From: Sphingosinicella sp. CPCC 101087
Lineage (GTDB): Bacteria; Pseudomonadota; Alphaproteobacteria; Sphingomonadales; Sphingomonadaceae
NCBI RefSeq assembly: GCF_004151485.1
Contig: NZ_SBFF01000008.1
Location: forward strand, 124,001 to 188,000
Reading direction: 5' to 3'
DNA: 64,000 nt
Shown: in pieces, positions 17,265 to 62,576 of the stretch
Numbering within the stretch: the first letter of the stretch is position 1
How the letters are laid out: each line of letters begins with the position of its first letter
Translations under genes and position numbers: made by a program
Notes under the pieces: generated by a model
The model's input: only the letters and a program-made list of their open reading frames with translations
Databases searched by the model: none
What the model was told of the DNA's origin: nothing

Positions 17265-17304
17265 AAAAAGAAAAACCCCCCGCTCCGGGTGGGAGCGGGG
17301 GGTT
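17265..17304 (-). terminator. Attenuator terminator upstream of ilvC
   Basis: On the minus strand a 13-bp GC-rich stem (arms 17292-17304 and 17274-17286, loop 17287-17291) is followed by a T-rich run (17265-17275), a classical intrinsic terminator. It lies between a leader peptide ORF and ilvC. The 5' arm contains CCGCTCCC (complement of 17291-17298). Those bases can instead pair with GGGAGCGG of the leader (complement of 17350-17357), giving a mutually exclusive antiterminator. Confidence 0.93.
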
Positions 17305-17332
17305 CTGTTTCGGGTCTTTCTAATCTCGACCT

Positions 17333-17458
17333 TCAGCCAGAGCCGGGCACCGCTCCCGGTGGGGCGCTAATAAGTACGAGCGTAATAAGGAGGGTCGCGG
17401 CGGCGCGCTGCGCTGCCGTCTCGGTGTTCTCGAAGCTGATCACATTCGTCAGCAGCAC
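17333..17458 (-). CDS. ilvL: Branched-chain leader peptide (IlvL-like)
   Basis: An open frame of up to 41 codons ends with TGA at 17333, about 30 bp before the terminator stem. Codons at 17369-17392 read CTC CTT ATT ACG CTC GTA CTT ATT, so seven of eight specify Leu, Ile or Val. The tail '[12 protein letters not shown]' recalls the Pro-rich end of enterobacterial IlvL. No ATG is available; the start is probably GTG at 17458 or GTG at 17443. Stalling at these codons when charged Leu, Ile or Val tRNA is short would favour the antiterminator. Confidence 0.85.
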
Positions 17459-17505
17459 AACCGTCCCATCCAGAAAAATCGCGGCGAACCGCTTCGGTCA
17501 CCAAG

Positions 17506-17534
17506 GATATACGCCGGCGGCCGGAACGCAAGTC
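17506..17534 (-). promoter_or_regulatory. Possible promoter of the ilv-leu-glt operon
   Basis: A TATATC hexamer at 17506-17511 (minus strand) is a fair -10 element about 50 bp upstream of the leader start. The hexamer 17 bp further upstream (GACTTG) is a poor -35. The rest of 17459-17842 shows no gene, apart from the upstream region of the next plus-strand gene. Confidence 0.3.
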
Positions 17535-17842
17535 CTCATTTGCCGCAGTGCAAAAAAGTCACGATCCCCTTCTGGGGCAACGGGGTTAACAAATTGACGA
17601 CACGGCGCAAGCGGCTGGAAAAGCACGCGAACAGCCCGCCGTGCGGCTGCACGGCCACCTCGCCGGCATGGCCCTGCGCCCGGGGCGGACGACACGAGGC
17701 GCCGCAGATATGACGATACGCCCACCGTGCCGAGCGCGCTCGGCCCCGGTAGAGCCCGCGCCATGGGTCGGCTTGGCTCTCCTTGACCGGCGCAAGGGGT
17801 TGCCTGAAAACCGCTTCGGAAAACGGCAGGGAGGCTGCGGAG

Positions 17843-21449: not shown

Positions 21450-21456
21450 CCCCGCC

Positions 21457-44013: not shown

Positions 44014-44016
44014 CGG

Positions 44017-45780
44017 TCAGGCCGACATTCGCAGCATCGCCGGCTCGGCCGCGGCCGAAGCCCCTCCGGCCGAAGCGAGCGAGCGCTGCAGGTCCATGAC
44101 GTCGGCGAACACCGCAGCGGCGCTCGGCCACCGGCCCGCGCCCTTGCCGAAGACGGCGCGCCGCTGCCCGGCCCGGTCATGGACCAGGAAGCGATTCTCC
44201 TCGTTGCGTGCGCCGGCGAGCGGATGGGAAGCGGGAAGCGCCTCGATCCGGACCTCGGCCTTGATCGATCCGTCCGCATCCTGGCTGCAGCGGCCGACCT
44301 GCTTGAGCACCTCGCCGCGCGCCAGCGCCGCCTGCGGCTCGCCCGGCGCGATGTCGCGCAGCGACTGCTTGTAGATCCGACCCGGGGGAACGGCGACTCC
44401 GAAGGCCTTGCGGATCAGGATCGACAATTTGTCGGCCGCATCGTGGCCGTCCACGTCGGCGGCCGGATCGGCCTCGGCGAAGCCGAGCTCCTGCGCCTTC
44501 GCCACCGCGGCGGCGAAATCCCAGCCCTCGCCGAGCCGGCTCAGAAGGAAATTGGCGGTTCCGTTCATCACGCCTTCGATCTCGCCTACGCCGGCATCGG
44601 CGCGAACTCGGGCGATGGTCTCCAGGATCGGCGATCCGCCGCCGACCGCGGCCGAATAGGAGAAGGTCGCCTTGCCCGCCTCGGCGCAGGCGTGGAGCGC
44701 GTCATAATGGCGCGCCACCGCCGCCTTGTTCGCGGTCACGACATGGGATCCGCGGCGAAGCGCGGCGCACATGATGTCGGCCGGATATTCCGATCCGCCG
44801 ATCAGCTCGATCACCAGATCGGGATCGCCGTCCAGCGCCTCGTCGAGATTGGCCGTGAACAATGCGCCGCCCTCGCTCGAATGGAGGTCCGGATGGCGGA
44901 CCAGCACCGGGTTGACCTTGAACAGATCGGGCCGCTGCTCGAGATAGGAGAGCACGCCCGCGCCGACGGCGCCGCAGCCGAGCAGCGACACCTTGAGCGG
45001 GGGCCAGACCAGCGGCACTTCCTTGCGCGGCGCCACGTCGGCGATCACCGTCGCCTCGTGATGGCCGATCGCGGCCACCTCGATGACGATGTTCCCCGCC
45101 GCGGCCGCGTGGATCGCCTTCGGCTGGATCAGCCCGGCGCTCGCTTCCTCGGCCGCCTCGTAGCCCAGCGCGCCGTAGCGCTCGGCACGCGGGTTCTGCG
45201 CCGGATCCTCGGCATAGACGCCGTCGACGTCCTTGAGCAGCCGGACCCGCCTGGAGCCCAGTTGCGCGGCGAAGAAGACCGCCGACAGGTCGGTACCGCC
45301 CCGGCCGAGCGTCACCACGCCATGCTCGGCATGGCCGGCGGTGAAGCCGGGGACGACGACCACGTCATGATCGTCGAAGCGGGCGAGCACGTTCTCGGCA
45401 TCGAGGCCGCACAGGTCGGAATCGAGCGGGTCGCCCTTGGCCTCCAGGCCCATTTCGTGGGGATCGACGGCGCAGGCGCGCACGCCCATCCGGCACAAGG
45501 CCAGCGCCATCAGGGCGGCGGAGCGAAGCTCGCCGACGCGGGCCAGCCGGGCGACCAGGGCCGGCGGCGCCTCGCCGCCGACCGCGCCCGCCTGGTCGAG
45601 CAGGAAATCGGTCTCCCCGGCCAGCGCCGACACGACGGCGACGATCTTCTCGCCCTCCCGGACATGCCGGTACACTTCCTGTGCCGCCGTCCGGTAGTCG
45701 GCCTCGCATTCGAGCACCGAGCTCCCGAACTTCAGCACGCAGAGACTGTGTTTCGCTTCGAGTGAACCTTCGCCTGCCAT
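44017..45780 (-). CDS. thrA: Bifunctional aspartate kinase-homoserine dehydrogenase, short form
   Basis: The 587-residue protein joins an N-terminal aspartate kinase ('VLKFGSSVL', 'GRGGTDLSAVFFAA', 'LLKDVDGVYAEDP', residues about 15-240) to a homoserine dehydrogenase ('LKVSLLGCGAVGAGVL' NAD site near 265, then 'VVTANKAAVA', 'GVMNGTANFLL' and 'ADVDGHDAADKLSILI'). E. coli ThrA is about 820 residues. The ACT domains that bind threonine between and after the two enzymes are not seen. Control would then fall on the upstream attenuator. Confidence 0.93.
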   Translation of the reverse strand: MAGEGSLEAKHSLCVLKFGSSVLECEADYRTAAQEVYRHVREGEKIVAVVSALAGETDFLLDQAGAVGGEAPPALVARLARVGELRSAALMALALCRMGVRACAVDPHEMGLEAKGDPLDSDLCGLDAENVLARFDDHDVVVVPGFTAGHAEHGVVTLGRGGTDLSAVFFAAQLGSRRVRLLKDVDGVYAEDPAQNPRAERYGALGYEAAEEASAGLIQPKAIHAAAAGNIVIEVAAIGHHEATVIADVAPRKEVPLVWPPLKVSLLGCGAVGAGVLSYLEQRPDLFKVNPVLVRHPDLHSSEGGALFTANLDEALDGDPDLVIELIGGSEYPADIMCAALRRGSHVVTANKAAVARHYDALHACAEAGKATFSYSAAVGGGSPILETIARVRADAGVGEIEGVMNGTANFLLSRLGEGWDFAAAVAKAQELGFAEADPAADVDGHDAADKLSILIRKAFGVAVPPGRIYKQSLRDIAPGEPQAALARGEVLKQVGRCSQDADGSIKAEVRIEALPASHPLAGARNEENRFLVHDRAGQRRAVFGKGAGRWPSAAAVFADVMDLQRSLASAGGASAAAEPAMLRMSA

Positions 45781-45812: not shown

Positions 45813-45849
45813 GATAATAAAAAACCCGCTCGCCTGGTGGGGAGCGGGT
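45813..45849 (-). terminator. Attenuator terminator upstream of thrA
   Basis: On the minus strand ACCCGCTC (45842-45849) pairs with GAGCGGGT (45824-45831) across a 10-base loop and is followed by a run of T. It lies between the leader peptide and thrA. The leader bases GCGGG at about 45893-45897 could pair with CCCGC of the stem and so block it. Confidence 0.88.
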
Positions 45850-45878: not shown

Positions 45879-45956
45879 TCAGCCGGTACCGCCCCGCACA
45901 CGGGTGATAATCGTGGTGATCATCATAATGGTCGTCGCGCGCGCGTCCGCCGCCAT
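45879..45956 (-). CDS. thrL: Threonine operon leader peptide (ThrL-like)
   Basis: A 25-codon frame from an ATG to TGA encodes 'ATTIMMITTIIT' in its middle: within 12 codons there are five Thr, four or more Ile and two Met. This matches the ThrL principle, as Thr and Ile share the pathway and Met branches from homoserine. The terminator follows about 30 bp later. A weak GGAAA lies upstream of the ATG. Stalling at these codons under Thr or Ile shortage should favour read-through into thrA. Confidence 0.9.
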   Translation of the reverse strand: MAADARATTIMMITTIITRVRGGTG

Positions 45957-46385
45957 GCCGTTTCCGGCACCGACCTCGGCAGACAGGATATGTGCAACCA
46001 GCGACATCGGATGCAGTCTCCAACGCCGTCCGAAGCGGACGACAGCGGCGTTCGACCGTCAAGATGACGGCTGAGACCATCATCCGTCAACTGGGTTAAT
46101 TTTGTGCTGCACCGGGTTTCGGAGCGCAGGATCGACTAAGTCACTGTTCCAGCTTGAAATTCTATGAGACAAATTTTTCCGGGCCAGCGGGTCGGAACGT
46201 GAGATATTCACCGCGTCGGCGTCCTGCGGGCAGTCCCGCTCGATCGTCACCCCGGCGAAGGCCGGGGTCAAGGCCTGCCGAAAGACTCGGCGCGATCGTC
46301 CGAATACCGGCCTTCGCCGGCATGACGAGATGCTTCGGCTCCGGTGTCTCACCCGCCCGGCGCAGCCGCGTGGCAGGGTGATCGA
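45957..46385. other. Intergenic region with thr promoter area and palindromic repeats
   Basis: About 430 bp between the thr leader and proA. The first part should hold the thr promoter, though I see no convincing hexamer pair. The second part holds a pair of palindromic repeats. No gene is recognised. Confidence 0.5.
46241..46329. repeat. REP-like pair of palindromic intergenic repeats
   Basis: CCCCGGCGAAGGCCGGGG near 46245-46265 and ACCGGCCTTCGCCGGCATGA near 46306-46325 are two copies of one palindromic unit in opposite orientation. Such units are common between genes in alphaproteobacteria and often end transcripts. They lie 3' of proA. Confidence 0.7.
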
Positions 46386-48902: not shown

Positions 48903-48995
48903 ATGAACAAAGGACAGGCCATTCGTCCCGCCTCCTTCGTCTCGACCGGCGCCTATATTTTTATCGGCTCGTTTATTGGCCGGTACGCCCGCTGA
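48903..48995 (+). CDS. Possible Phe/Tyr leader peptide upstream of the aro operon
   Basis: A 30-codon ORF with AGGAG and AAGG upstream encodes 'STGAYIFIGSFIGRYAR' at its end: the last half has three aromatic residues in seven and more close by (Phe at 12, 20 and 24; Tyr at 18 and 28). The operon that follows makes chorismate and prephenate products, so Phe or Tyr sensing is logical. A TTGACA at 48830-48835 may be the -35 of its promoter, though the -10 is poor. No T-tract terminator follows, so the mode of action differs from the other leaders here. Confidence 0.55.
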   Translation: MNKGQAIRPASFVSTGAYIFIGSFIGRYAR

Positions 48996-49044
48996 GGCGT
49001 GCCGGAGCCGATTGTCGCTTAACTTCCTGAAAACGAGCCAATAA
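48963..49044 (+). promoter_or_regulatory. Alternative hairpins over and after the aro leader ORF
   Basis: ATCGGCTC (48963-48970) pairs perfectly with GAGCCGAT (49005-49012). Directly inside, CGGTACGCC (48981-48989) pairs with GGCGTGCCG (48996-49004), and the leader stop codon lies at the loop. TTATTGGC (48973-48980) can instead pair with GCCAATAA (49037-49044). The bases overlap the codons where ribosomes would stall. Confidence 0.55.
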
Positions 49045-49099: not shown

Positions 49100-49729
49100 A
49101 TGCCGAAGACCCAAGCCGCCGAGCGCGCGCGAAGCGGCGACGCCGCCGCCCGGTCGCTCGCCGAACTGCGCACGCAGATCGACGCGATCGACGACGCGCT
49201 GCTCGATCTGATCGAAAAGAGGCTGGCCGCGTCGCAGTCGGTCGCCACCCTGAAATCGGCCCGTCCGGACGGGCATCTGTGGATGCACCCGCGCCGCGAA
49301 CAGGAGGTGATCGCCCGCCTCTCGCGCCGCGCCTCGATCGCCCCGCATCGCCTCGTCGAGCTGGTGTGGCGCGAGCTGATGGCGTTCAGCCTCCAGGCGC
49401 AGGTGCGGACCGAACTGGTGCTCGCCGGGCCGGATCCGGACCGGCTCGAGGGCCTTGCCCGGCGGCGGTTCGGATCGGCGGCGCCGGTCCGCTGCGCCGC
49501 CGACCCCGCCGAAGCGATTGCCGCCGCATCTTCCGGCGAGGCGGTGGCGGTGATCGCCTTCGATGGGTCGGCCGAATGGATCGAGCGGCTGCCGCCCACC
49601 TTGTCGATCTTCGACTGGGTCCGTGACGAGGAGGGCGAGGCGGTGGCGGCGGCGGTCGGCCGAATCGCCCCCGCCGAGCTGCCCGAGCCCGCAATCTCCG
49701 CTCAGGCCGAAGCGGAGTCCGAGCGATGA
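49100..49729 (+). CDS. Chorismate mutase (AroQ type) with C-terminal extension
   Basis: The 209-residue protein has an AroQ helical core at about 20-105 ('LAELRTQIDAIDDALLDLIEKRLAASQSVATLK' and 'REQEVIARLSRRA'), which turns chorismate into prephenate. About 100 further residues of unclear fold follow, ending in an acidic tail. The start at 49100 has GAGGGA upstream. It is the first gene of a seven-gene operon and overlaps the next gene by four bases. Confidence 0.87.
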   Translation: MPKTQAAERARSGDAAARSLAELRTQIDAIDDALLDLIEKRLAASQSVATLKSARPDGHLWMHPRREQEVIARLSRRASIAPHRLVELVWRELMAFSLQAQVRTELVLAGPDPDRLEGLARRRFGSAAPVRCAADPAEAIAAASSGEAVAVIAFDGSAEWIERLPPTLSIFDWVRDEEGEAVAAAVGRIAPAELPEPAISAQAEAESER

Positions 49730-51018
49730 GCTGGACCCCGGCAAGCTGGCGCGAACGGCCGGCGCGGCAGATGCCCTCTTATCCCGACCTCGGTGCGCTG
49801 GCGCAGGTCGAATCCCGGCTGGCCTCGGCGGCGCCGCTCGCCCGCGTCGCAGACATCCGGCGCTTGAGCGGCCTGATCGCGGAAGCCTCGGCGGGACGCG
49901 CCTTCCTGCTCCAGGGCGGGGACTGTGCCGAGAGCTTCGCCGAGTTCGGCGCCAACAAGGTGCGCACCGTCTTCAACCTCCTGCTCGAAATGGCGGCTAT
50001 GCTGTCCGCCGACGGCGGCCGCGAGGTGGTGACGGTGGCCAGGATCGCCGGCCAGTTCGCCAAGCCGCGCTCGGCGGCGACAGAGACGGTGGGCGAAATC
50101 ACCCTCCCCGCTTATCGCGGCGATATCGTCAACGGCGCCGCCTTCGATCCCTTGAGCCGGACGCCCGATCCGGAGCGCATGCTCCAGGCGCACCGCCAGT
50201 CGAAGGTGACGATAGAGCTGCTCCACGCCTTTTCGGCCGCCGCTTATGCCGATCTCGGCGCGATCCGGCTCAGTGCCCAGGCAAGGTTGGGACTCGGCTC
50301 GGAGCGAGGGCGCTGGGGCGAGGAGGCGCCGCAGCCGCGCGTCTTCACCAGCCACGAGGCGCTCCTGCTCCATTACGAGCAGGCGCTCACCCGCTGGGAC
50401 GAGGAGAGCGAGAGTTGGTGGGCGACCTCGGGCCACATGCTGTGGCTCGGCGACCGCACCCGCCAGATCGACGGCGCCCATGTCGAATATGCCAGCGGCG
50501 TCAGCAATCCGATCGGCCTCAAATGCGGCCCGAGCCTGAGCGCCGACGAGCTGCTCCGGCTGATCGACCGGCTCGATCCGGACAACCGCCCCGGCCGGCT
50601 GGTGCTGATCGGTCGGTTCGGCGCCAAGGCGGCGGCGGATCACCTCCCGGCGCTGATGCGCGCGACCCGCCAGGCCGGAAGCCAGGCTTTATGGGCGATC
50701 GACCCGATGCACGGCAACACGGTGACCGCCGGCGGCTTCAAGACGCGCTTCCTCGGCGATATCGTCGCGGAGATGACGCGCTTCTTCGACATTGCCGATT
50801 CGCAGGGCGTCCACGCCGGCGGGGTCCATCTCGAGCTGACCGGCGACGACGTCACCGAATGCCTGGGCGGCAGCCTTCCACTGTGCGAGGCGGACCTGCC
50901 GCGCCGCTACCTCACCCATTGCGACCCCCGCCTCAACGAAACCCAGGCGCTCGATCTGGCCGCCGAGGCGGCCCGCCTGATGAGGAGACGCACCCGGCCG
51001 GCGTCGCACGCCGCGTGA
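49726..51018 (+). CDS. Class II 3-deoxy-7-phosphoheptulonate (DAHP) synthase
   Basis: This plant-like type II enzyme starts the shikimate pathway from PEP and erythrose 4-phosphate. The 430-residue protein begins 'SWTPASWRERPARQMP', has 'LLQGGDCAESFAEF', 'AGQFAKPRS', 'LKCGPSLSADEL' and 'WAIDPMHGNTV', and ends in a typical helical tail. It overlaps the chorismate mutase gene by ATGA. Class II enzymes often pair with AroQ mutases for feedback, which may explain the order. Confidence 0.95.
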   Translation: MSWTPASWRERPARQMPSYPDLGALAQVESRLASAAPLARVADIRRLSGLIAEASAGRAFLLQGGDCAESFAEFGANKVRTVFNLLLEMAAMLSADGGREVVTVARIAGQFAKPRSAATETVGEITLPAYRGDIVNGAAFDPLSRTPDPERMLQAHRQSKVTIELLHAFSAAAYADLGAIRLSAQARLGLGSERGRWGEEAPQPRVFTSHEALLLHYEQALTRWDEESESWWATSGHMLWLGDRTRQIDGAHVEYASGVSNPIGLKCGPSLSADELLRLIDRLDPDNRPGRLVLIGRFGAKAAADHLPALMRATRQAGSQALWAIDPMHGNTVTAGGFKTRFLGDIVAEMTRFFDIADSQGVHAGGVHLELTGDDVTECLGGSLPLCEADLPRRYLTHCDPRLNETQALDLAAEAARLMRRRTRPASHAA

Positions 51019-52361
51019 GCGAGGCTCCCGCCCTGACGGCCGAGGCCGGCGACCGGCTGTCCGCCGGCCGCGCCGAGGCGCTGCGCGGATCGGTCCGCGT
51101 TCCCGGCGACAAGTCGATCTCGCACCGCGCCTTGATCCTCGCTGCGATGGCCGAGGGGGAGAGCCGGATCACCGGACTGCTCGAAGGTCAGGACGTGCTC
51201 GACACCGCCGCCGCCGTCGGTGCGCTCGGCGCGGCGGTCGAGCGCCGGGAAGGCGCTTGGCATGTCGCGGGGGCACCATGGCGCTCGCCGGACAAGGTGA
51301 TCGACTGCGGCAATTCGGGTACCGGCGTGCGGCTGCTGATGGGCGCCGTGGCCGGCCGCCCGGTCGAAGCCACGTTTACCGGCGACGACTCCTTGCGCGG
51401 GCGACCGATGGGGCGCGTGATCGAACCGCTGCGGGCCATGGGCGGGCGGATCGAAGCCGCGCCCGGGGACCGGCTGCCGCTCACCGTCCACGGCGGAACG
51501 CTGCACGGCATTCGCCACCTCAACGACAAGGCATCGGCCCAGGTCAAGTCGGCCATCCTGCTCGCCGGCCTGAGCGCCGACGGTCTGGTCGAGGTGATCG
51601 AGCCGAGGGCGAGTCGGGACCATAGCGAGATCATGCTGAAGGCGTTCGGCTGCGAGATCGAGACCGCCCCCGCGGGAGAGGGCCGGGTCGTGCGCCTCGG
51701 CCGCCGGCGCTTCCTACGCGGCACCGACGTCGACGTGCCGGGCGATCCGTCCTCTGCCGCCTTCCCGCTCGTCGCCGCTCTTATCGTGCCCGGATCCGAA
51801 GTGACCGTCCGCGACATGCTGCTCAATCCGCTGCGGACCGGACTTCTCACCACCCTGAGCGAGATGGGCGCGGCGATCAGCATCGCCAACAGGCGGGAGG
51901 TCGGCGGCGAGACGGTCGGCGACGTCACGGCACGCGCTTCGGGCTTGCGCGGGATCGAGGTCGGGCCGGCGCGGGCGCCTTCGATGATCGACGAATATCC
52001 GATTCTGGCGGTCGCCGCCGCCTGTGCCGACGGGGTGACCCGGCTGCACGGGCTGGGCGAGCTCCGGGTCAAGGAAAGCGACCGGCTGGAGGCGATCCTC
52101 GCCGGCCTTCGCGCCGGCGGCGTCGAGGCGGAAAGCCATGGCGACACGCTCGAGATACAAGGCTCCGGCTCCGGCTCCGCGCCGCCGGGCGGCGGGCAGG
52201 TGTCCACCCATGGCGATCACCGCATCGCGATGAGCTTCCTGGTGCTCGGCATGGCGGCGCGCGCGCCCGTCGCGGTCGACCGCCCGGAAATGATCGCGAC
52301 CAGCTTTCCCCTGTTTGCCGAGCTCATGCAGTCGCTCGGCGCCCGGATCGAAGCCGCATGA
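51015..52361 (+). CDS. aroA: 3-phosphoshikimate 1-carboxyvinyltransferase (EPSP synthase)
   Basis: The 448-residue protein has 'VPGDKSISHRALILAAMA', 'NSGTGVRLLMG', 'DEYPILAVAAA', 'LRVKESDRLEA' and 'STHGDHRIAMSFLVLG', the EPSP synthase signatures. The start is GTG at 51015, overlapping the previous stop (GTGA). The short Gly/Ser-rich insert before 'STHGDHR' is unusual but does not touch the site. Confidence 0.96.
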   Translation: MSEAPALTAEAGDRLSAGRAEALRGSVRVPGDKSISHRALILAAMAEGESRITGLLEGQDVLDTAAAVGALGAAVERREGAWHVAGAPWRSPDKVIDCGNSGTGVRLLMGAVAGRPVEATFTGDDSLRGRPMGRVIEPLRAMGGRIEAAPGDRLPLTVHGGTLHGIRHLNDKASAQVKSAILLAGLSADGLVEVIEPRASRDHSEIMLKAFGCEIETAPAGEGRVVRLGRRRFLRGTDVDVPGDPSSAAFPLVAALIVPGSEVTVRDMLLNPLRTGLLTTLSEMGAAISIANRREVGGETVGDVTARASGLRGIEVGPARAPSMIDEYPILAVAAACADGVTRLHGLGELRVKESDRLEAILAGLRAGGVEAESHGDTLEIQGSGSGSAPPGGGQVSTHGDHRIAMSFLVLGMAARAPVAVDRPEMIATSFPLFAELMQSLGARIEAA

Positions 52362-52915
52362 GCGGGACCGTCGCCTATCAGGGCGTTCGCGGCGCCTTCG
52401 GCGAGGAGGCCTGCCGGCTTTTCCTTCCCGACCTGAAGCCTGTGCCGCTGCCGACCTTCGCGGCCGTCGCCGAGGCCGTCGCGCGCGGCGAGACCGGGCG
52501 CGGCATGCTTCCGCGCAGGAATTCGACGGCCGGGCCGGTGCCGGGCATCGACGCGCTGATGGAAGAGAAGGGTCTTGAGGTGCAGGCGAGCCACGTCCTT
52601 CCGGTGCGGCTCCACCTGTTGGCGCGGCCCGGCGTGACGCTGGAGGCGGTACGGTCGGTCGTGAGCCATCCGATGGCGCTGGCACAATGCGCACGGACTT
52701 TGGAACGGCTCGGCCTCGCCACCGAGGAAGCCGCCAACACCGCCATGGCGGCGCGCGCGGTGGCGGAATCGGACGATAGCGGCCGCGCCGCCGTCGCCTC
52801 CGAGTTCGCCGCCGAGGCCTGGGGCCTGGCGATTCTCATGGGCGACGTCCATGACCGGGCGGACAATGCCACGACCTTCTGCGTCGTGACCCGCCGGAAC
52901 GGAGAATCGCGGTGA
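52358..52915 (+). CDS. Prephenate dehydratase-like protein lacking the ACT domain
   Basis: The 185-residue protein matches the prephenate dehydratase fold ('[18 protein letters not shown]', '[15 protein letters not shown]', 'DNATTFCVV') but is short: the usual enzyme has about 100 more residues with a Phe-binding ACT domain. Key motifs are altered. '[12 protein letters not shown]' stands where 'LPIENSLAG' is usual, and 'TTF' stands where 'TRF' is usual. It overlaps aroA and aroC. It may be a divergent or inactive form, or a partner of the adjacent mutase. Confidence 0.78.
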
Positions 52916-53991
52916 GCCTCAACAGCTTCGGCCGGATGCTGCGCTTCACCACCTGGGGCGAGAGCCACGGGCCGGCGATCGGCGCCGTCGTCGACGGCTG
53001 CCCGCCGGGCCTGCCGCTCGGCGAAGCGGACATCCAGCCCTGGCTCGACCGCCGCCGCCCGGGCACCTCGCGCTTCACCACTCAGCGGCGCGAGCCCGAC
53101 ACGGTCCGGATTCTTTCGGGCGTGTTCGAGGGTCTCACCACCGGTTCCCCGGTCAGCCTGATGATCGAGAATGTCGACCAGCGGTCCAAAGACTATTCCA
53201 ACATCGCCGGCGCCTATCGCCCCGGCCATGCCGACTACACCTACGACGCCAAATATGGCCGCCGCGACTGGCGGGGCGGCGGCCGCAGCTCCGCCCGCGA
53301 AACGGCGTCGCGCGTCGCTGCCGGCGCCGTGGCGCGCAAGGTGATCCCGGAGGTGGCCATCCGCGCCTATCTGGTCGAGCTGGGCGGGGATTCGATCGAC
53401 CGCGCCGCCTTCGACGATGCGGCGATCGACGCCAATCCCTTCTTCTGCCCCGATCCGACCGCCGCGGCGCGGTGGGAGGCGCTGGTCGACGGCGCCCGCA
53501 AGGACGGCAGTTCGCTGGGCGCGGTGGTGGAATGCGTGGCGACCGGCGTGCCAGCCGGGTGGGGAGCGCCCCTCTATGCCAAGCTGGACGCCGAACTCGC
53601 GGCGGCGATGATGTCGATCAACGCCGTGAAGGGCGTCGAGATAGGCGGCGGCTTCGCCGCGGCGCGTCTGCGCGGCGAGGAGAATGCCGACGAGATGCGT
53701 CGCGGCGAGGACGGCCGCCCGGCCTTCCTCAGCAACCATGCCGGCGGCATTCTCGGCGGGATTTCGTCGGGCCAGCCGGTCGTCGTGCGGATCGCGTTCA
53801 AGCCCACCTCGTCGCTGCCGATGCCGCTGCGGACGATCGACGCGGCGGGGGAGGAGACCGAGATCAGCACCCGGGGACGGCACGACCCCTGCGTCGGCAT
53901 ACGCGGCGTGCCGGTGGCCGAAGCGATGATGGCCCTGGTCCTGGCCGACCAGAAGCTCCTCCATCGCGCCCAGTGCGGGACCGGATCGTGA
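52912..53991 (+). CDS. aroC: Chorismate synthase AroC
   Basis: AroC makes chorismate using reduced FMN. The 359-residue protein has '[22 protein letters not shown]', '[15 protein letters not shown]' and '[17 protein letters not shown]'. The start is GTG at 52912, overlapping the preceding stop (GTGA). Length matches the family. Confidence 0.97.
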
Positions 53992-55124
53992 CCGGGCCGG
54001 AGCCGGTCGAAGTCGAGGTCGGGCTCGGCGCGCGCAGCTATTTCGTGCGGATCGAAGCGGGCCTGCTGGATCGCGCCGGCAAGCGGCTGGAGGGCTTCGC
54101 GCGCAACGGGCGTCTCGTCATCGTCTCGGACGAGACGGTCTGGGCGCTGCAGGGCGAGCGGCTCGCCGCCGGCCTTGCCGCTTCATCGATCGAGGCGGTG
54201 CCGATCCTCGTCCCGCCCGGCGAAGGCAGCAAGAGCTGGGCGGGCCTTTCCGCGCTGGTCGACCGTCTGCTTGTCCTGGGGGTCGAGCGGCGCGACCATC
54301 TCGTCGCCTTCGGCGGCGGCGTGGTCGGCGACCTGGCCGGCTTCGCCGCGGCGATTCTCAAGCGCGGCTGCCACTTCGTGCAGATCCCGACTACCCTGCT
54401 CGCCCAGGTCGACAGCTCGGTCGGCGGCAAGACCGGGATCAACGTCGCCGCGGGCAAGAATCTGGTCGGCGCCTTCCACCAGCCTGCGGAAGTGCTCCTC
54501 GACCCCCTGTGCCTCGACACGCTGCCGCCGCGCCAGTTGCGGGCCGGCTATGCCGAGGTGGTCAAATATGGACTGATCGGCGACGCCGGCTTCTTCGCCT
54601 GGTGCGAGGCGCATGGCGAGGCTCTGGTCGCCGGCGACCTGGCGGCTCGGCAGCGGGCGATCGCGATCAGCGTGGCCGCCAAGGCGGCGATCGTCGGGGA
54701 GGACGAGCGCGAGACGAGCGGCCGGCGCGCCTTGCTCAACCTCGGCCACACGTTCGGCCATGCGCTCGAGGCAGAGACCGGTTTCTCAGACGCACTGCTC
54801 CACGGCGAAGCGGTGGCGCTGGGCATGGCGCTCGCCTTCCGTTTCTCGGCCGAGCGCGGGCTGTGCAGCGACGGCGACGCGGCGCGAGTCGCCGCCCATC
54901 TCGCTTCGGCCGGCCTCCCGACCCGCCTTGCCGACGCCGGAATCGAGGCGGAGGCCGGACGGCTCGTCGCCCATATGGCGCACGACAAGAAGGCGAGCGG
55001 CGGGCGCCTCCCCTTCATCCTGGCGCGCGGCATCGGCGAGGCGTTCGTCGACTCCAGCGTCGAAATGGACGAAGTGGAACGCTTCCTCGCCGCCGAAGCG
55101 GCACAACAGGCAGGCCGACCATGA
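53988..55124 (+). CDS. aroB: 3-dehydroquinate synthase AroB
   Basis: The 378-residue protein has the NAD site '[17 protein letters not shown]', '[11 protein letters not shown]' and the metal-binding '[12 protein letters not shown]' and '[12 protein letters not shown]' motifs. The start is GTG at 53988, overlapping the aroC stop (GTGA). It cyclises DAHP in the second shikimate step. Confidence 0.97.
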
Positions 55125-55954
55125 TCCATGCCGAGGTCATCGGCGACCCGATCGCCCATTCGCGCTCGCCGGCGATCCACCGCTTCTGGCTGGAGGCGCT
55201 CGGCCTGGAGGGCGAATATCGCGCAACCCAGGTCGCGCCGGGTGGGCTGGCGGTGTATTTCGCCGACCGGCGAGGGGACCCGGGCTGGCGCGGCTGCAAC
55301 GTGACCGCGCCGCACAAGGAATCCGTCGCCGATTTTCTCGACGAGGTCGGTGCCGAGGCGAAGAAGATCGGGGCGGTCAACTGCATCCATCGCGAGGGCG
55401 ATCGCCTCGTCGGCCTCAACACCGACGTCGATGGCCTTGCCGAAGCGCTGGCCGGGGCCGAGCTTGCCGGGGCGAAGATCGCGGTGATCGGCGCCGGCGG
55501 CGGCGCGCGGGCGGCAGTCCACCTCGCCGTCCGGAGCCAGGTGCGAAGCATCGCCATCATCGCCCGCGATTCCGCCAAGGCGACGTCGCTGGCCGGGCTC
55601 GGCAGCGCGCGCACCGAGATCAGGATCCTGCCGTTCGAGCGCAGCCGCGAGGCCATCGCCGGCGCGGCGGCGGTGGTCAACGCGACGCCGATGGGCTTGG
55701 CCGGCGCCGACGAGATGCCTGCGCCGACGCTCGCCTCCCTGGACGAAGCGGCACCCGGCTGCGTCGCGCTCGACATGGTCTACGTCCCCCTCGATACGCC
55801 TTTCCTGACCGCCGCCCGCGCCGCCGGGCTGATCCCGGTCGACGGGCTGGCGATGCTGATCGGCCAGGCCCGTCGCGCTTTCAGACTGTTCTTCGGCGTG
55901 ACACCGCCGGCCGACCGGGACGCGGAGCTGCGCGAGTTGCTGACCCGGAAGTAG
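55121..55954 (+). CDS. aroE: Shikimate dehydrogenase AroE
   Basis: The 277-residue protein has '[12 protein letters not shown]' for shikimate binding, the catalytic Lys in '[15 protein letters not shown]', '[11 protein letters not shown]' and the NADP site '[13 protein letters not shown]'. It overlaps aroB by ATGA and ends the operon; no terminator is seen in the 20 bp before the convergent VOC gene. Confidence 0.96.
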
Positions 55955-57831: not shown

Positions 57832-57861
57832 TTGACAGCACCGCCGCGGCACCCCCATATT
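57832..57861 (+). promoter_or_regulatory. Promoter upstream of the phhA leader
   Basis: A perfect TTGACA (57832-57837) and a CATATT -10 (57856-57861) are 18 bp apart. The expected transcription start is near 57868, next to the leader ATG at 57869, so the leader mRNA may have little or no 5' untranslated part. Confidence 0.6.
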
Positions 57862-57868
57862 CAGCCCG

Positions 57869-57970
57869 ATGCAGATGCTTCGCGCTTCCTGCCGTCCCAA
57901 CGGTGCCGCGGCTCCCGCCGCCGCCATTTCCTATTGGTATCACGGTATCGCCCGGGCGGGACCGATCTAG
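57869..57970 (+). CDS. Tyr/Trp-containing leader peptide upstream of phhA
   Basis: A 33-codon frame encodes 'AAAISYWYHGIARAGPI' at its end, with TAT TGG TAT at 57932-57940 as the control codons. A terminator with T tract follows the stop by about 30 bp, then phhA. The bases GGCGGG at about 57954-57959 can pair with CCCGCC of the terminator stem. As phenylalanine hydroxylase makes tyrosine, stalling at Tyr codons would raise Tyr synthesis. There is no ribosome site, but the promoter predicts a leaderless message. Confidence 0.78.
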   Translation: MQMLRASCRPNGAAAPAAAISYWYHGIARAGPI

Positions 57971-58000
57971 CGCGCTTGAAATCGACGCTAAGGATTGTAG

Positions 58001-58034
58001 CCCCGCCTGGTCTCCCGGCGGGGTTTTTCGTTTT
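58001..58034 (+). terminator. Attenuator terminator upstream of phhA
   Basis: CCCCGCC (58001-58007) pairs with GGCGGGG (58017-58023) around a nine-base loop and is followed by TTTTTCGTTTT. It lies between the leader peptide and the phhA ribosome site. Confidence 0.92.
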
Positions 58035-58047: not shown

Positions 58048-58941
58048 ATGTTCAAGGACGTTTCAGACCCCACTCCGCTCGGCGCCCCAGCCGCCGAGCG
58101 CCATGGCGCAGCCAAGGATCCCACTTGCCCGCCGCCTGGAGCCGCGGCGGACTGGACCGTGCCGCAACGCTGGGACGCGCTCAGCGCCGAGGATCATGCC
58201 GTGTGGGACTTCCTGTTCGCGCGCCAGCAGGATGCGCTCGCCGGCCGCGCGGTCCGCGCCTTCGAGGAAGGGCTCGAGGTGCTGCGACTGTCGCGCCCCG
58301 GTGTCCCCGATTTCGACGAGCTGAACGAGCGGCTGTTCGGCCGCACCGGCTGGACGGTGGTCGCGGTGCCGGGGCTGGTCCCCGACGACGTCTTCTTCGA
58401 GCATCTGCGCCACCGCCGCTTCCCGGCCGGAAACTTCATCCGCAAGCGCTCGCAGCTCGATTATCTCGAGGAGCCCGACGTCTTCCACGACGTGTTCGGC
58501 CATGTGCCCCTGCTCGCCAATCCGGCGGTCGCCGACTTCATGCAGGCGCTGGGCGAGCTCGGCCTGCAGGCATTGGAGGCCGGCGCGCTGCACCGGCTGG
58601 CCCGGCTCTACTGGTACACGGTCGAGTTCGGCCTCGCCCGCGAGGACGATTGCCTCAAGATCTACGGCGCGGGCATCGTGTCGAGCTTCGGCGAAAGCCG
58701 CTTCTCGCTCGAAAGCCCGGAGCCGAACCGAATCGCCTTCGATCTCGAGCGGGTGCTGCGCACCGCCTATCGGTCGGACGCCTTCCAGAAGAGCTATTTC
58801 GTCATCGACGGGCTGCCCGGCCTGCTCAAGGTCACCGAGGGACGGGACTTCGAAGCACTCTATCGCGCGGCGGAAGCCGATGCGGACATCGATCCGGCGA
58901 CGGTGAGCCCGGCCGACCGGCTGGTCGCGGTGGGCGCATGA
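58048..58941 (+). CDS. phhA: Phenylalanine 4-monooxygenase (phenylalanine hydroxylase)
   Basis: This pterin- and iron-dependent enzyme turns phenylalanine into tyrosine. The 297-residue protein has the iron-binding 'DVFHDVFGHVPLLANP' with both His ligands, and the Glu in 'YTVEFGLAREDDCLKIYGAGIVSS'. A GGAAGGA site precedes the ATG at 58048; the frame is open upstream, but that part covers the leader and terminator. Its stop overlaps the start of the trp leader. Confidence 0.95.
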   Translation: MFKDVSDPTPLGAPAAERHGAAKDPTCPPPGAAADWTVPQRWDALSAEDHAVWDFLFARQQDALAGRAVRAFEEGLEVLRLSRPGVPDFDELNERLFGRTGWTVVAVPGLVPDDVFFEHLRHRRFPAGNFIRKRSQLDYLEEPDVFHDVFGHVPLLANPAVADFMQALGELGLQALEAGALHRLARLYWYTVEFGLAREDDCLKIYGAGIVSSFGESRFSLESPEPNRIAFDLERVLRTAYRSDAFQKSYFVIDGLPGLLKVTEGRDFEALYRAAEADADIDPATVSPADRLVAVGA

Positions 58942-59027
58942 CGCCGCTCGCCCTCCGCCTGGTCCCGACCCGTTGGTGGCGCTGGCGCGCTGCCCCGATG
59001 GGCGTGCCCGACCGGCGAAGCTTCTAG
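58938..59027 (+). CDS. trpL: Tryptophan leader peptide 1 (TrpL), overlapping the phhA stop
   Basis: A 29-codon frame starts at an ATG that overlaps the phhA TGA (ATGA at 58938-58941). It encodes 'RWWRWRAAP' with TGG TGG CGC TGG at 58974-58985. A terminator follows the stop by about 25 bp. Stalling at these Trp codons should favour transcription into the DAHP synthase and trpEG genes. The leader has no separate ribosome site, so its translation may depend on ribosomes ending at phhA. Confidence 0.92.
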   Translation: MTPLALRLVPTRWWRWRAAPMGVPDRRSF

Positions 59028-59052
59028 TCCATATTGGAAGCCCGATGACCGG

Positions 59053-59089
59053 AAAGGCCCGCCCCCAAAAGGCGGGCCTTTTCTTTTCC
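59053..59089 (+). terminator. Attenuator terminator upstream of the DAHP synthase gene
   Basis: An 11-bp stem AAAGGCCCGCC (59053-59063) with GGCGGGCCTTT (59071-59081) and an A-rich loop is followed by a T-rich run. It sits between TrpL 1 and the DAHP synthase gene. Confidence 0.94.
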
Positions 59090-59110: not shown

Positions 59111-60127
59111 ATGATCATCGTTCTCAAGCCCGAAGCCAGCCCGCAGATCGCCGAAGCTCTGCTCGCCGAGATTGCCGACCGCGGCCTCAAGCCGCTTCAC
59201 ATGCCGGGGGTCGAGCGCGTCGTGCTCGGCGCGCTCGGCGACGAGAGGGTGCTCGCCGAACTGAACCTCGAAAGCCATCCGATGGTGGAATCGGTAAAGC
59301 CGATCCTGGCCCCCTACAAGCTCGTGTCGCGCGAGATGCACCCGCACGATTCGGTGGTGAAGGTCGGCAAGGTTCCGATCGGCGGCCGCGCCTTCACGGT
59401 CATCGCCGGCCCCTGCGCGGTGGAGACTCGCGACCAGACCCGCAACACCGCCGAGGCGGTCAAGGCGGCGGGCGCCGCGGCTCTGCGGGCAGGCGCCTAC
59501 AAGCCGCGCACCAGCCCCTACGGCTTCCAGGGCCATGGCCGCGAAGGCCTGGCGATGCTGAAGGACGTGAGCGAGGAGACCGGCTTGCCCTTCGTGACCG
59601 AGGTGATGGACACGGCCGATGTCGACGCGGTGGCGCAAGCGGCCGACGCGATCCAGATCGGCGCGCGCAACATGCAGAATTTCGCCCTGCTCCGCGCCGT
59701 CGGCCAGACGAACAAGCCGGTGCTGCTGAAGCGCGGGCTTTCGGCGAAGATAGAGGAACTGCTGCTCGCCGCCGAATATCTGCTCGCCGCCGGCAACGAG
59801 CAGGTGATCCTGTGCGAGCGCGGCATTCGTACCTTCGAAACGGCGACCCGCAACACGCTGGACCTCAATGCCGTCCCCTATATCAAGCAGAAGACCCACC
59901 TGCCGGTGCTGGTCGATCCCTCGCACGGCACCGGATTTCGCGACCTCGTCATCCCGATGTCGCTGGCCGCGGCGGCGTGCGGCGCCGACGGCCTGCTCGT
60001 CGAGGTGCACGAAAATCCGGCCGTCGCCTTGTCCGACGGCGCCCAGTCGCTCTACCCGCAGGGCTTTCGCAACCTGATGGACTCGCTTCGGCCGGTCGTC
60101 GAAGCGGTCGGGCGGCAAATGGCATGA
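59111..60127 (+). CDS. aroF: Type I (beta-subtype) DAHP synthase with N-terminal ferredoxin-like domain
   Basis: The 338-residue protein has an N-terminal ferredoxin-like domain ('[21 protein letters not shown]', about 1-70) and a TIM barrel with '[45 protein letters not shown]' and '[25 protein letters not shown]', as in the Thermotoga-like enzymes regulated by the N-terminal domain. It is the second DAHP synthase in the window and of a different family from the one at 49726. It overlaps trpE by ATGA and lies behind a Trp attenuator, so it may be the Trp-linked isozyme. Confidence 0.94.
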
Positions 60128-61671
60128 GCGCCAGGATCGCCGAAGGCGAGGCGCTGGCGCTGTGCCGACAGCTGCCGCACGCCGTCGACCCGCTCGACCT
60201 CTATGCGGCCCTCAGCGACGGCGGGAAGCGACCGGACACGATGCTGCTCCAGCGGTCGACCGGGCCGAGCCTGCTGCTCGACCAGGCCGCGGTCCGGGCA
60301 GAGTGCCGCGGTCCGGCGGTGCATCTCGAGGCGCTGTCGGCGGGGGGCCGCAACGTGCTGGCTGCGGCGGCACGGGTGATGCCCGATCGCGTCTCCGAAC
60401 GATCCGACCAGCGGCTGGTGCTTCTATTCGCGCGCAACGACAGCGCGGAGCCCGAGGAAAGGCTGCGCGCTCCCTCGCCTTTCTCGGTGCTGCGCTTCCT
60501 TTCCGCCGGCCTCGCTTCGGCGTCACGCGAGGAGCCGTTCACGCTCGCCTGCCTCGGCGTCGTCGCTTTCGATCATGTCGACCTGATCGAAGACCTGCCC
60601 GGGGCGGCCGACGATCCGCTCGGCTTTCCGGACTTCCAGTTCTGGCTCGCCGAATCCCTGGTCGTGTTCGAGAGCGGCGCGCCGCCGCGCGCGGTGTGCA
60701 CGGCCTTCGGTGCCGCCGATCCGAACCAGGGGGCCCGGGCCTATTTCGGGGCGGCGGAGCGGCTCGCCGACCTGGTCGCCCGCAGCGGGCGCGCCGTGCC
60801 GATCACGGCTCCGCCGGTGGGGCGCCGGCCGGCCGACTTCACCCAGGCCGATCTCAGCGACGAGGATTATGCCGAGGTGGTGGTCCGGATGAAGGCGCAT
60901 ATCGCCGAAGGCCAAGTCTATCAGATCGTTCCGTCGCGAACCTTCCGCGCCCCCTGCCCCGATCCGCTGCCCGCCTTCGCCACCCTGCGCCGGCTGGATC
61001 CCAGCCCCTATCATTTCTTCGTCAGCGCACCCGGCCACCGGCTGATCGGTGCGTCGCCCGAAACGTCGGTGCGGCTGTTCCGCGAAGAGGGCGAAGCGAC
61101 CGTCGAGGTCAAACCGATCGCCGGCACCCGGCCGCGCGGCGCCTCCGGCGACGAGGACGACCGGCTGGAGGCGGAGATGCGGCTCGATATCAAGGAGGTC
61201 GCCGAGCATATGATGCTCGTCGACCTCGCCCGCAACGACGTCGCACGGGTGAGCGTCCCGGGCACGCGACGGGTCGCGAAGCTGCTGACCGTGGAACGCT
61301 ATGCGCGGGTGATGCACCTGGTCTCGTCGGTCACCGGCCGGCTGAGGCCCGGCATGGACGCGCTCCACGCGCTCCAGGCCTGCCTCAACGTCGGCACCCT
61401 GACCGGCGCGCCGAAGATCCGTGCCACCGAGCTGCTGCGCGAGACCGAGCGCACCAAGCGCGGTCCTTATGGCGGCGCGATCGGCTGGATCAACGGCGAC
61501 GGCATGATGGACACGGCGGTCGTCATCCGCTCTGCGGTGGTCAAGGACGGCACCGCCTTCGTGCGGGCCGGGGCCGGGATCGTCCATGACAGCGACCCGG
61601 CGAGCGAAGCCGCCGAGACGCGGCGCAAGGCCTCGGCGCTGCTGACCGTGCTGGCAGGAGCGCAGGAATGA
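60124..61671 (+). CDS. trpE: Anthranilate synthase component I TrpE
   Basis: The 515-residue protein makes anthranilate from chorismate. It has '[17 protein letters not shown]', '[17 protein letters not shown]', '[16 protein letters not shown]' and '[15 protein letters not shown]'. The usual Trp-binding 'LLES' near the N-terminus is replaced by '[14 protein letters not shown]', so feedback sensitivity may differ. The start overlaps the DAHP synthase stop (ATGA at 60124-60127). Confidence 0.95.
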
Positions 61672-62315
61672 AACCGCAGGTTCTTTTCATCGACAATTTC
61701 GATTCCTTCACGTTCAACCTGGTCGAGGCGTTCGAGCGGCTGGGATGCACCGTGCGGGTGCTACGCAACACGGTCGACTCGCGCACGGCGCTGGCTCTGG
61801 CCGACTCCGAGAGAGCCCTGATCGTCCTCTCGCCGGGGCCGGGCACGCCGCGCGACGCCGGCTGCTGCCTGGATCTGATCGGCCTCGCCTTGGGAAAGGT
61901 CCCGTTGCTCGGGATCTGCCTCGGCCATCAGGCGATCGTCGAGCAAGCGGGCGGCGCAGTTGTGCGGGCGCCCGAGCCGGTCCATGGCAAGGCCTCACGC
62001 ATCGACCATGACGGCGAAGGGCCGCTGCGCGGGCTCGAAAGCCCGCTCACGGTCGGGCGGTATCATTCACTGTGCACGCGCGACCTGCCGCCGCGCTTCC
62101 GGGTTCATGCCCAGGTCGGTGGAATGGCGATGGCGATCAGCGATCCCAATGCGATGCAGACCGGTTTGCAGTTCCACCCGGAGTCGATCCTCACTCTCCA
62201 CGGCGACGCGATCCTGCGCAACGTGCTCGCCCTGGCAGCGGGATTGAAGCGGGAGGCGGAGCCGGAAGACGCGGCGGGCGCCGGTCATCTCCGGGTCGGA
62301 GTGGCCGGGTCGTGA
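61668..62315 (+). CDS. trpG: Anthranilate synthase component II (glutamine amidotransferase) TrpG
   Basis: The 215-residue protein supplies ammonia to TrpE. It has 'LFIDNFDSFTFNLVEAFERLG', the catalytic Cys in 'PLLGICLGHQAIV' and the His-Glu pair in 'GLQFHPESILT'. It overlaps trpE by ATGA. Its TGA is overlapped by a GTG that could start an extended form of the following leader. Confidence 0.95.
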   Translation: MKPQVLFIDNFDSFTFNLVEAFERLGCTVRVLRNTVDSRTALALADSERALIVLSPGPGTPRDAGCCLDLIGLALGKVPLLGICLGHQAIVEQAGGAVVRAPEPVHGKASRIDHDGEGPLRGLESPLTVGRYHSLCTRDLPPRFRVHAQVGGMAMAISDPNAMQTGLQFHPESILTLHGDAILRNVLALAAGLKREAEPEDAAGAGHLRVGVAGS

Positions 62316-62386
62316 GCAAGAATATTCTCATTTGCGGCGCAAGAAAGCCATTGACCCTCGGCCGCAAAACCGGAACACTTGCGGAC

Positions 62387-62518
62387 ATGTTCGCGCCGAC
62401 GATCCGGAATGCTTTCCGCGACGCACGCCCCTTGGGCGATGCGGCAGGCGCCCATGCGCAGGCTTGGCTCTGGTGGCGGGATATCCCCTCCGCGGCGGCA
62501 AGCATGCGTCTCTGGTGA
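62387..62518 (+). CDS. Tryptophan leader peptide 2, between trpG and trpD
   Basis: A 43-codon frame from the ATG at 62387 encodes 'AHAQAWLWWRDIPSAAAS' and ends 'MRLW', with Trp codons at 62465, 62471, 62474 and 62513. The frame is also open back to a GTG at 62312, which overlaps the trpG stop (GTGA) and would give 68 residues. A strong terminator with eight T follows the stop by about 30 bp. This is a second, internal Trp attenuator inside the same operon. Confidence 0.88.
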   Translation: MFAPTIRNAFRDARPLGDAAGAHAQAWLWWRDIPSAAASMRLW

Positions 62519-62550
62519 CCCGGACTCCCTAGTCCAGATTCCCGAAGATG

Positions 62551-62576
62551 GCCCGCCGCCCGGCGGGCTTTTTTTT
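62551..62576 (+). terminator. Attenuator terminator upstream of trpD
   Basis: GCCCGCC (62551-62557) pairs with GGCGGGC (62562-62568) around a four-base loop, followed by eight T (62569-62576). GGCGGG in the leader (about 62475-62480) could compete for the first arm. Confidence 0.95.

What the first reader, a model, noticed from the sequence alone, without database searches (positions are those of the whole stretch)
17265..62576. Unusual density of leader-peptide attenuators
Four leader-plus-terminator units in addition to the ilv unit, plus one possible hairpin-only unit, lie within 46 kb and cover Leu/Ile/Val, Thr, Phe/Tyr, Tyr and Trp. The concentration suggests that this lineage uses attenuation as its main means of amino-acid control, with the genes gathered in one chromosomal region. 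All leaders are too small for normal gene calling.
Basis: partly seen in the sequence, partly recalled or inferred. Interest (0 to 1): 0.8.

Follow-up and report, generated by a model that had tools for sequence, protein, structure and literature searches.

The report
Amino-acid gene island with attenuators
In one bacterium, five groups of amino-acid-making genes sitting close together each carry a tiny built-in sensor that should switch them on only when the matching amino acid runs short, including an unusual tyrosine sensor on an enzyme that is probably this microbe's way of making tyrosine.

Summary
Observation confirmed. Five leader-peptide/terminator units precede ilvC (Leu/Ile/Val), thrA (Thr/Ile), phhA (Tyr), aroF-trpEG (Trp) and trpD (Trp). 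A sixth, hairpin-only unit precedes a shikimate operon (Phe/Tyr). In folding simulations the terminator's 5' arm is sequestered when the ribosome sits on the cognate codons and freer when it is at the stop. For ilvC, aroF, trpD and phhA, close orthologues keep cognate codons and terminator while the peptides diverge; thr has no such relative.

Interpretation partly supported. In 30 family loci scanned per gene, leaders occur only with close orthologues. The island continues past the window (trpCF-B-A, his, met- and cys-type genes), and his has a TrpR-family gene and no leader. IlvC of this type groups with another class of Pseudomonadota, some of whose loci share the leader, so that operon probably travelled as a cassette.

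Most novel: a Tyr-codon attenuator on phenylalanine hydroxylase in a genome with no detectable TyrA, where PhhA should make tyrosine. It recurs in Sphingomonas parva (YSYYY), which does have TyrA. ThrA and PheA here lack ACT feedback domains. Attenuation is a known mechanism; I found no report of it on phhA in the held library. No expression data exist.

The parts
17333..17458 (-). ilv leader peptide, 41 aa, GTG start, control run LLITLVLI
   Evidence: leaders in L233, L234 and L305-L308, L311
17272..17306 (-). ilv intrinsic terminator (15-bp stem, TCTTTTTG tail)
9509..17246 (-). attenuated operon ilvC-ilvG-ilvM-leuA-leuB-leuC-leuD
   Evidence: same order in G202 and G232
45879..46007 (-). thr leader peptide, 42 aa, control run TTIMMITTIIT
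45824..45849 (-). thr intrinsic terminator
41738..45780 (-). thrA (aspartate kinase-homoserine dehydrogenase fusion without ACT domains) - thrB - thrC
48903..48995 (+). Phe/Tyr-rich leader peptide (ends YIFIGSFIGRYAR), hairpin-only unit
   Evidence: conserved in G332
48980..49005 (+). hairpin with the leader stop codon in its loop; no T run
49100..55954 (+). shikimate operon: chorismate mutase - DAHP synthase II - aroA - pheA (no ACT) - aroC - aroB - aroE
   Evidence: same order in G332
57832..57861 (+). promoter-like TTGACA-18-CATATT before the phhA leader; the leader ATG follows after 7 nt
57869..57970 (+). Tyr leader peptide of phhA, 33 aa, control codons Tyr-Trp-Tyr
   Evidence: S. parva counterpart YSYYY
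57999..58025 (+). phhA intrinsic terminator
58048..58941 (+). phhA, phenylalanine 4-monooxygenase
58938..59027 (+). Trp leader peptide of aroF-trpEG, 29 aa, WWRW; its ATG overlaps the phhA stop
   Evidence: L173-L175, S. parva
59051..59083 (+). aroF intrinsic terminator
59111..62315 (+). aroF (DAHP synthase) - trpE - trpG
62387..62518 (+). Trp leader peptide of trpD, 43 aa, WLWW
   Evidence: L203-L205
62551..62568 (+). trpD intrinsic terminator (tail of 8 T)
62603..64000 (+). trpD and the start of fused trpCF (trpB and trpA follow outside the window)

Best explanation
Five of the six units are classical ribosome-mediated transcription attenuators, each tuned to the product of the operon behind it. 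When the cognate charged tRNA is short, the ribosome stalls on the control codons, an upstream segment pairs with the 5' arm of the terminator, and RNA polymerase reads through. When it is plentiful, the ribosome runs to the stop codon, covers that segment, and the terminator forms. They lie together because the window is part of an amino-acid biosynthesis island put together from operon cassettes. The ilv cassette, leader included, was probably shared with another class of Pseudomonadota by horizontal transfer; the trp and shikimate cassettes turn up in a few relatives together with their leaders. The phhA unit makes a phenylalanine hydroxylase of ordinary sphingomonad type respond to tyrosine, which makes sense because this genome has no detectable TyrA, so PhhA is the likely tyrosine-making enzyme. 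Shown by computation: anatomy, cognate codons, conservation in relatives (not for thr), fold switching (weak for thr and phhA), no TyrA hit in the assembly. Inferred: that the leaders are translated, that termination occurs and responds, the direction of transfer, and that PhhA is anabolic here.
For: Anatomy and cognate codons. Ribosome-position folding (profiles, averages): probability that the terminator 5' arm is sequestered, ribosome on control codons vs on stop: ilv 0.85 vs 0.02, thr 0.68 vs 0.28, phhA 0.79 vs 0.32, aroF 0.69 vs 0.17, trpD 0.90 vs 0.06. With the whole terminator present its probability on the control codons falls from 1.00 to 0.02 (trpD) and from 0.81 to 0.42 (phhA). Of 13 homologous leaders folded, shuffles reach the sequestration difference 0-5 times of 100 in 7 (L233, L305, L308, L204, L173, L174, L032). 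Conservation: close orthologues of ilvC, aroF and trpD, S. parva for phhA and aroF. Operon logic: G094 has one aroF-trpEGD-CF-B run and one leader; G135 has two divergent runs and two leaders. IlvC tree of 59 rows: the leader-bearing type of window, G202 and G232 and nine more family members share a side of a branch with six other-class sequences (99/95), while 18 ordinary family IlvC sit with other members of the same class (100/98). Other-class loci L305-L308 carry leaders of the same pattern. TyrA (PF02153): no hit in the own genome, 14 of 14 control genomes positive. Chance controls.
Against: Fold-switch shuffles: strong for ilv (0 of 200), trpD (4 of 200) and aroF (11 of 200), weak for thr and phhA (25 of 200 each; on terminator probability 5 and 4 of 200). 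Six of 13 homologues switch no better than 14 or more of 100 shuffles on sequestration: L234 43, L205 34, L175 34, L307 23, L203 18, L306 14 (of these L205, L307, L175 and L203 do better on terminator probability: 0, 0, 3 and 7 of 100; L234 and L306 do not: 11 and 17). The S. parva phhA leader reaches 5 of 100 on sequestration but 23 of 100 on terminator probability. At equilibrium the ilv, thr and aroF terminators form in either state (0.82-0.98), so the switch there needs co-transcriptional timing. The phhA leader has only two Tyr codons, with a Trp between, and is found in two genomes only. The thr unit has no relative with a leader (1 of 30; the two full-length ThrA relatives lack it). S. 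parva keeps TyrA, so loss of TyrA is not the reason for the leader. Nothing has been tested in cells.
Confidence: 0.8

Rival explanations
1. Lineage-wide habit: this lineage controls amino-acid synthesis mainly by attenuation.
For: Five cognate units in 46 kb.
Against: In one search I accept no cognate leader in 27 of 30 ilvC, 26 of 30 aroF, 26 of 30 trpD and 29 of 30 thrA family loci (L196 and L215 have Trp-containing frames treated as chance). The his operon has a TrpR-family gene and no leader. No cognate leader showed up for other genes of the contig.
Confidence: 0.08
2. The hairpins are ordinary terminators of upstream genes and the short ORFs are chance.
For: Hairpin counts are not above shuffles in the three 20-kb blocks; the aroF unit follows phhA and the trpD unit follows trpG on the same strand.
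Against: Terminator plus cognate leader: 0-1 of 1000 shuffles. The leaders recur where the neighbouring gene or its direction differs (G135, S. parva). Sequestration is highest with the ribosome at or before the control codons and falls towards the stop.
Confidence: 0.04
3. Vertical inheritance: the attenuated operons are ancestral in the family and were lost by most members, rather than transferred.
For: The closest cassette relatives are in the same family, and nine more family members have the same IlvC type without a leader.
Against: IlvC of this type groups with another class, ordinary family IlvC with the same class. The sets of genomes that carry the ilv, trp and shikimate cassettes differ.
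Confidence: 0.25
4. The phhA leader senses Trp or aromatic amino acids in general, not tyrosine, since its control codons are Tyr-Trp-Tyr.
For: One Trp codon sits between the two Tyr codons, and the next operon is Trp-controlled.
Against: The S. parva counterpart is YSYYY with no Trp.
Confidence: 0.12

Closest known systems
Classical proteobacterial amino-acid attenuators (comparative set of Vitreschak et al. 2004: seen only as a reference entry in PMC9413887, PMC1262725 and PMC7298713; its contents recalled)
   Same: Leader ORF with cognate codons, terminator, competing antiterminator, biosynthetic operon behind
   Different: No Rfam match at gathering threshold and no amino-acid leader among nine matches at E up to 10; tyrosine on phhA is outside the classes named in the passages I read
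ilvCGM-leuA operon of Xanthomonas campestris (PMC12575087, passages seen, some from the abstract)
   Same: Begins ilvC-ilvG-ilvM and includes leuA; reported there as one operon with a promoter upstream of ilvC
   Different: Here leuA follows ilvM with no room for the threonine dehydratase gene reported there, and leuB-leuC-leuD follow; the passages seen do not discuss attenuation
trpE(G) attenuator of Sinorhizobium meliloti (PMC7298713, passages seen)
   Same: Alphaproteobacterial Trp-codon leader and terminator; there the RNA begins at the leader ATG, and here the phhA leader ATG lies 7 nt after a -10-like box
   Different: Here it controls aroF-trpEG and, separately, trpD; of three S. meliloti trp operons only trpE(G) is attenuated
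AroR leader of Corynebacterium glutamicum aroF (PMC11802643, passages seen)
   Same: Phe-Tyr-Phe leader before a DAHP synthase operon, like the hairpin-only unit here
   Different: AroR is reported to respond to Phe and not Tyr; the unit here has no T-run terminator
Predicted attenuators ahead of tyrA operons (PMC1173090, passages seen)
   Same: Attenuation proposed in the tyrosine pathway (Agrobacterium, Vibrio)
   Different: On tyrA operons, not on phhA
Tyrosine synthesis through phenylalanine hydroxylase (PMC7311316, passages seen: Dyella japonica, Legionella pneumophila, Echinicola vietnamensis)
   Same: PhhA as tyrosine-making enzyme; no TyrA found in the first two
   Different: No attenuator mentioned in the passages seen

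Membership tests
Ribosome-mediated transcription attenuator | Short ORF with codons for the operon's product | tested here: met
   Five of five units; chance 0-1 of 1000
Ribosome-mediated transcription attenuator | Intrinsic terminator between leader ORF and first gene | tested here: met
   Five of six units; the chorismate mutase unit fails this
Ribosome-mediated transcription attenuator | Competing antiterminator whose formation depends on ribosome position | tested here: met
   sequestration higher at control codons than at stop in five of five; clearly beyond shuffles for ilv, trpD and aroF, inconclusive for thr and phhA (25 of 200 each)
Ribosome-mediated transcription attenuator | Conservation of control codons across species | tested here: met
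   Met for ilv, aroF, trpD, phhA; not met for thr (1 of 30)
Ribosome-mediated transcription attenuator | Termination responds to cognate charged tRNA | not testable with these tools
   No expression data
Rfam amino-acid leader families | Covariance-model score at gathering threshold | tested here: not met
   0 matches; nine matches at E up to 10, none an amino-acid leader
Transcription attenuator, chorismate mutase unit | Terminator with T run | tested here: not met
   none found in the window or in G332
Translational attenuator, chorismate mutase unit | Start-region accessibility changes with ribosome position | tested here: not met
   flat, 0.54-0.59 (window) and 0.35-0.45 (G332)
Anabolic PhhA | No prephenate/arogenate dehydrogenase in the genome | tested here: met
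   PF02153 no hit in G000 (99.96% complete, 44 contigs); controls 14 of 14
Anabolic PhhA | Growth without tyrosine depends on phhA | not testable with these tools
   Needs an experiment

The most novel reading that the evidence does not exclude
The island replaces allosteric feedback by attenuation: self-contained, cis-encoded attenuators came with imported operons (needing no partner repressor in the new host), while enzymes behind them lack ACT feedback domains (ThrA, PheA). In the same setting a native phenylalanine hydroxylase, usually read as catabolic, gained a tyrosine-specific attenuator and became the regulated tyrosine-making enzyme. This would be a Tyr-specific ribosome-mediated attenuator on phhA, and a rule that attenuator-bearing operons are favoured when prototrophy is regained.
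Probability: 0.3. Interest if true: 0.7.

Novelty: new variant of a known kind. Interest (0 to 1): 0.5.

Why it matters
If right, the phhA unit is a tyrosine-responsive ribosome attenuator on an enzyme usually read as catabolic, so a leader could tell which PhhA proteins make tyrosine. That would be a simple annotation clue to prototrophy in genomes without TyrA. The cassette pattern also makes testable the idea that cis-encoded attenuators help operons survive horizontal transfer because they need no host regulator.

Tried and rejected
Rfam at gathering threshold and at E up to 10: no amino-acid leader. Plain terminator counts: no excess in three 20-kb blocks, a modest one in the last 10 kb; hairpin number alone is not evidence. 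One search, and the unnamed-genome part, under-counted leaders because unnamed-genome loci are not turned to the match strand; redone by tblastn anchoring. Translational control of the chorismate mutase unit: no change in start accessibility with ribosome position. A donor for aroF or thrA: 150 genomes of the phylum each; best aroF relatives 54% and 49%, no full-length ThrA relative among the listed matches; no conclusion. Leaders were not looked for in the loci those two searches brought (L334-L371). A his leader: none seen upstream of the TrpR-family gene and hisG. Frames I treated as chance: L196 and L215 (Trp), L327 and L333 (Leu/Ile/Val, 48-109 nt before a stem); L049 (Sphingopyxis sp. 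PET50, Tyr-Tyr before a strong stem) I leave open. In the thr unit a second frame is His/Tyr-rich because of the repetitive codons; the Thr/Ile frame fits thrA and has GGAG ahead of its ATG. Literature: ten searches. No title, abstract start or passage I saw reported a phhA attenuator; no listed paper held phhA together with the other two terms, and (Sphingomonadales, leader peptide, attenuat) returned 0 papers. This covers the held open library only.
Full report
What is there. The window is G000:C43:124001-188000 of a 4.70-Mb, 44-contig genome. Most of the 80 named loci related to its PhhA carry Sphingomonadales names, so I place it there. NCBIfam and Pfam name a dense set of biosynthesis genes: katG, gltD, gltB, leuC, leuA, ilvG, ilvC, thrC, thrB, thrA, proA, proB, chorismate mutase, DAHP synthase II, aroA, pheA, aroC, aroE, phhA, aroF, trpG, trpD, an ACT-type ilvM, trpE and an aconitase-type leuD, aroB (C-terminal part of the model) and leuB.

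The six units. Sequences are, coordinates. The control runs are LLITLVLI before ilvC, TTIMMITTIIT before thrA, YWY before phhA, WWRW before aroF and WLWW before trpD, each followed 23-32 nt after the stop by a strong terminator. The sixth, before the chorismate mutase, has a Phe/Tyr-rich peptide and a hairpin with the stop codon in its loop, but no T run.

More than chance? Yes for the five. Terminator plus cognate leader occurred in 0 of 1000 shuffles for thrA, aroF and trpD and 1 of 1000 for phhA, and in 0 of 1000 for ilvC after I lowered an over-strict ilv threshold from 8 to 7 of 12. Of 209 called genes on the contig, 6 have a strong terminator within 300 nt upstream and 4 of these are ilvC, thrA, aroF and trpD. 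The bare number of hairpins is not above shuffles in three 20-kb blocks and modestly above in the last 10 kb.

Mechanism. I moved a ribosome along each leader and folded the RNA downstream of it up to the terminator loop. The 5' arm of the terminator is sequestered when the ribosome sits on the control codons and much less when it is on the stop: ilv 0.85/0.02, thr 0.68/0.28, phhA 0.79/0.32, aroF 0.69/0.17, trpD 0.90/0.06. With the whole terminator present, trpD falls from 1.00 to 0.02 and phhA from 0.81 to 0.42 on the control codons. For ilv, thr and aroF the terminator wins at equilibrium in either state, so the model there needs co-transcriptional timing. Against shuffles of the intervening region the difference is reached 0 (ilv), 4 (trpD), 11 (aroF), 25 (thr) and 25 (phhA) times of 200. 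Of 13 homologous leaders, 7 are reached by 0-5 of 100 shuffles and 6 by 14-43 of 100; the six are listed in the evidence against.

Conservation. In one search, 30 family loci per gene were scanned. ilvC: own, L233 (79%) and L234 (76%) have leader and terminator; 27 others (68% or less) have no cognate leader. aroF: own, L173, L174, L175 (66-78%) have it; 26 others (36% or less) do not, apart from a Trp-rich frame 72 nt before a stem in L196. trpD: own, L203, L204, L205 (58-64%) have it; L206 (59%) does not; 25 others (49% or less) do not, apart from a frame with three Trp before a stem downstream of the start in L215. thrA: own only, 1 of 30. In a phylum sample of 29 ilvC loci, L305-L308 (62-64%, another class) carry leaders of the same pattern, L311 (57%, another class) a Leu/Ile/Val-rich one, and 24 have none that I accept. 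For phhA, 141 loci were scanned (the own locus twice): 9 showed a stem above threshold, and the Tyr leader is in two genomes, the window's and Sphingomonas parva; L049 is ambiguous.

Operon logic. G094 has aroF-trpE-trpG-trpD-trpCF-trpB in one run and one leader. G135 has aroF-trpEG divergent from trpD-trpCF-trpB-trpA and two leaders. S. parva has aroF-trpEG divergent from phhA, with a Trp leader on one side and the Tyr leader on the other. G202 and G232 have the full ilvC-G-M-leuA-B-C-D order. G332 has chorismate mutase-DAHPS II-aroA-pheA-aroC-aroB-aroE. The chorismate mutase leader is conserved between window and G332 from a CAGGAGCAA stretch before its ATG to the ..GSFIGRYA end, but I found neither a terminator nor a change in start accessibility, so its mechanism stays open.

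Origin. In an IlvC tree of 59 sequences (rooted only for drawing) the leader-bearing type of three genomes and nine more family members share a branch with six other-class sequences (99/95), while 18 ordinary family IlvC sit with seven other members of the same class (100/98). Operon order resembles ilvCGM-leuA of Xanthomonas campestris (PMC12575087, passages). ThrA of this form (kinase and dehydrogenase fused) matches over nearly its whole length, among the listed matches, in three of 199 family genomes, its own included. PhhA, by contrast, is of ordinary family type (about 60-65% to many family members) and most of those have no leader, so the leader looks like a local gain, beside an attenuated aroF operon in both genomes that have it.

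Tyrosine. PF02153 (TyrA) gave no hit in the own genome, while 14 of 14 control genomes, G005, G232 and the S. parva genome were positive. Of the nine other genomes asked, five more gave no hit (G332, G135, G173, G140, and G202, which is 89% complete) and G094 gave one below the cut-off. G135 and G173 also have no phhA hit, so absence of TyrA does not always go with phhA. GapMind (PMC7311316, passages) reports tyrosine made by PhhA in Dyella, Legionella and Echinicola. A Tyr-codon leader on phhA fits an anabolic PhhA. PMC1262725 (passages) names T-boxes for tyrosine and attenuators for histidine, threonine and phenylalanine; AroR of C. glutamicum has Phe-Tyr-Phe but responds to Phe (PMC11802643, passages). 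PMC1173090 (passages) reports predicted attenuators ahead of tyrA operons, so attenuation in the tyrosine pathway is not unheard of.

Feedback domains. Pfam finds no ACT domain in ThrA (587 aa) or PheA (185 aa); LeuA's dimer domain is just below cut-off (24.1 vs 24.9), and ilvM is itself an ACT-type protein. G332's ThrA relative ends too early for ACT domains (judged by length, not scanned) and has no leader, so a link between missing ACT domains and attenuation is only a suggestion.

But his has a TrpR-family gene before hisG (PF01371; compare HisR in PMC9413887, passages, which also mention a TrpR-like repressor for his in Xanthomonas oryzae) and no leader, and the family loci scanned lack these leaders. 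So the concentration reflects which operons were assembled here, not a lineage habit. The same paper (passages) gives a precedent for transfer of a his operon together with its attenuator.

Noticed in passing
L299:5100-5435 (C43:191100-191435): A TrpR-family gene (YerC/YecD type) overlaps the start of hisG, a likely his regulator in the same island.
   Followed up: partly
window 58938-58941: The aroF leader's ATG overlaps the phhA stop codon, so phhA and the Trp leader may share a transcript and be translationally coupled.
   Followed up: no
window 57832-57869 and 62351-62387: Promoter-like boxes sit so close to the phhA and trpD leader ATGs that these leaders may begin at the transcript's 5' end (the trpD boxes read by eye, weak -10).
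   Followed up: no
window 44017-45780 and 52358-52915: ThrA (kinase-dehydrogenase fusion) and PheA lack ACT domains.
   Followed up: partly
own genome, ilvC search: The own genome has three matches to IlvC; the two weaker ones were not inspected.
   Followed up: no
L049 (Sphingopyxis sp. PET50), upstream of phhA: A strong stem preceded by a short frame with Tyr-Tyr; a second Tyr leader or chance.
   Followed up: no
G135 and G173 (same genus): Small genomes (2.4-2.5 Mb) with no phhA hit and no TyrA hit; they may need tyrosine from outside.
   Followed up: no
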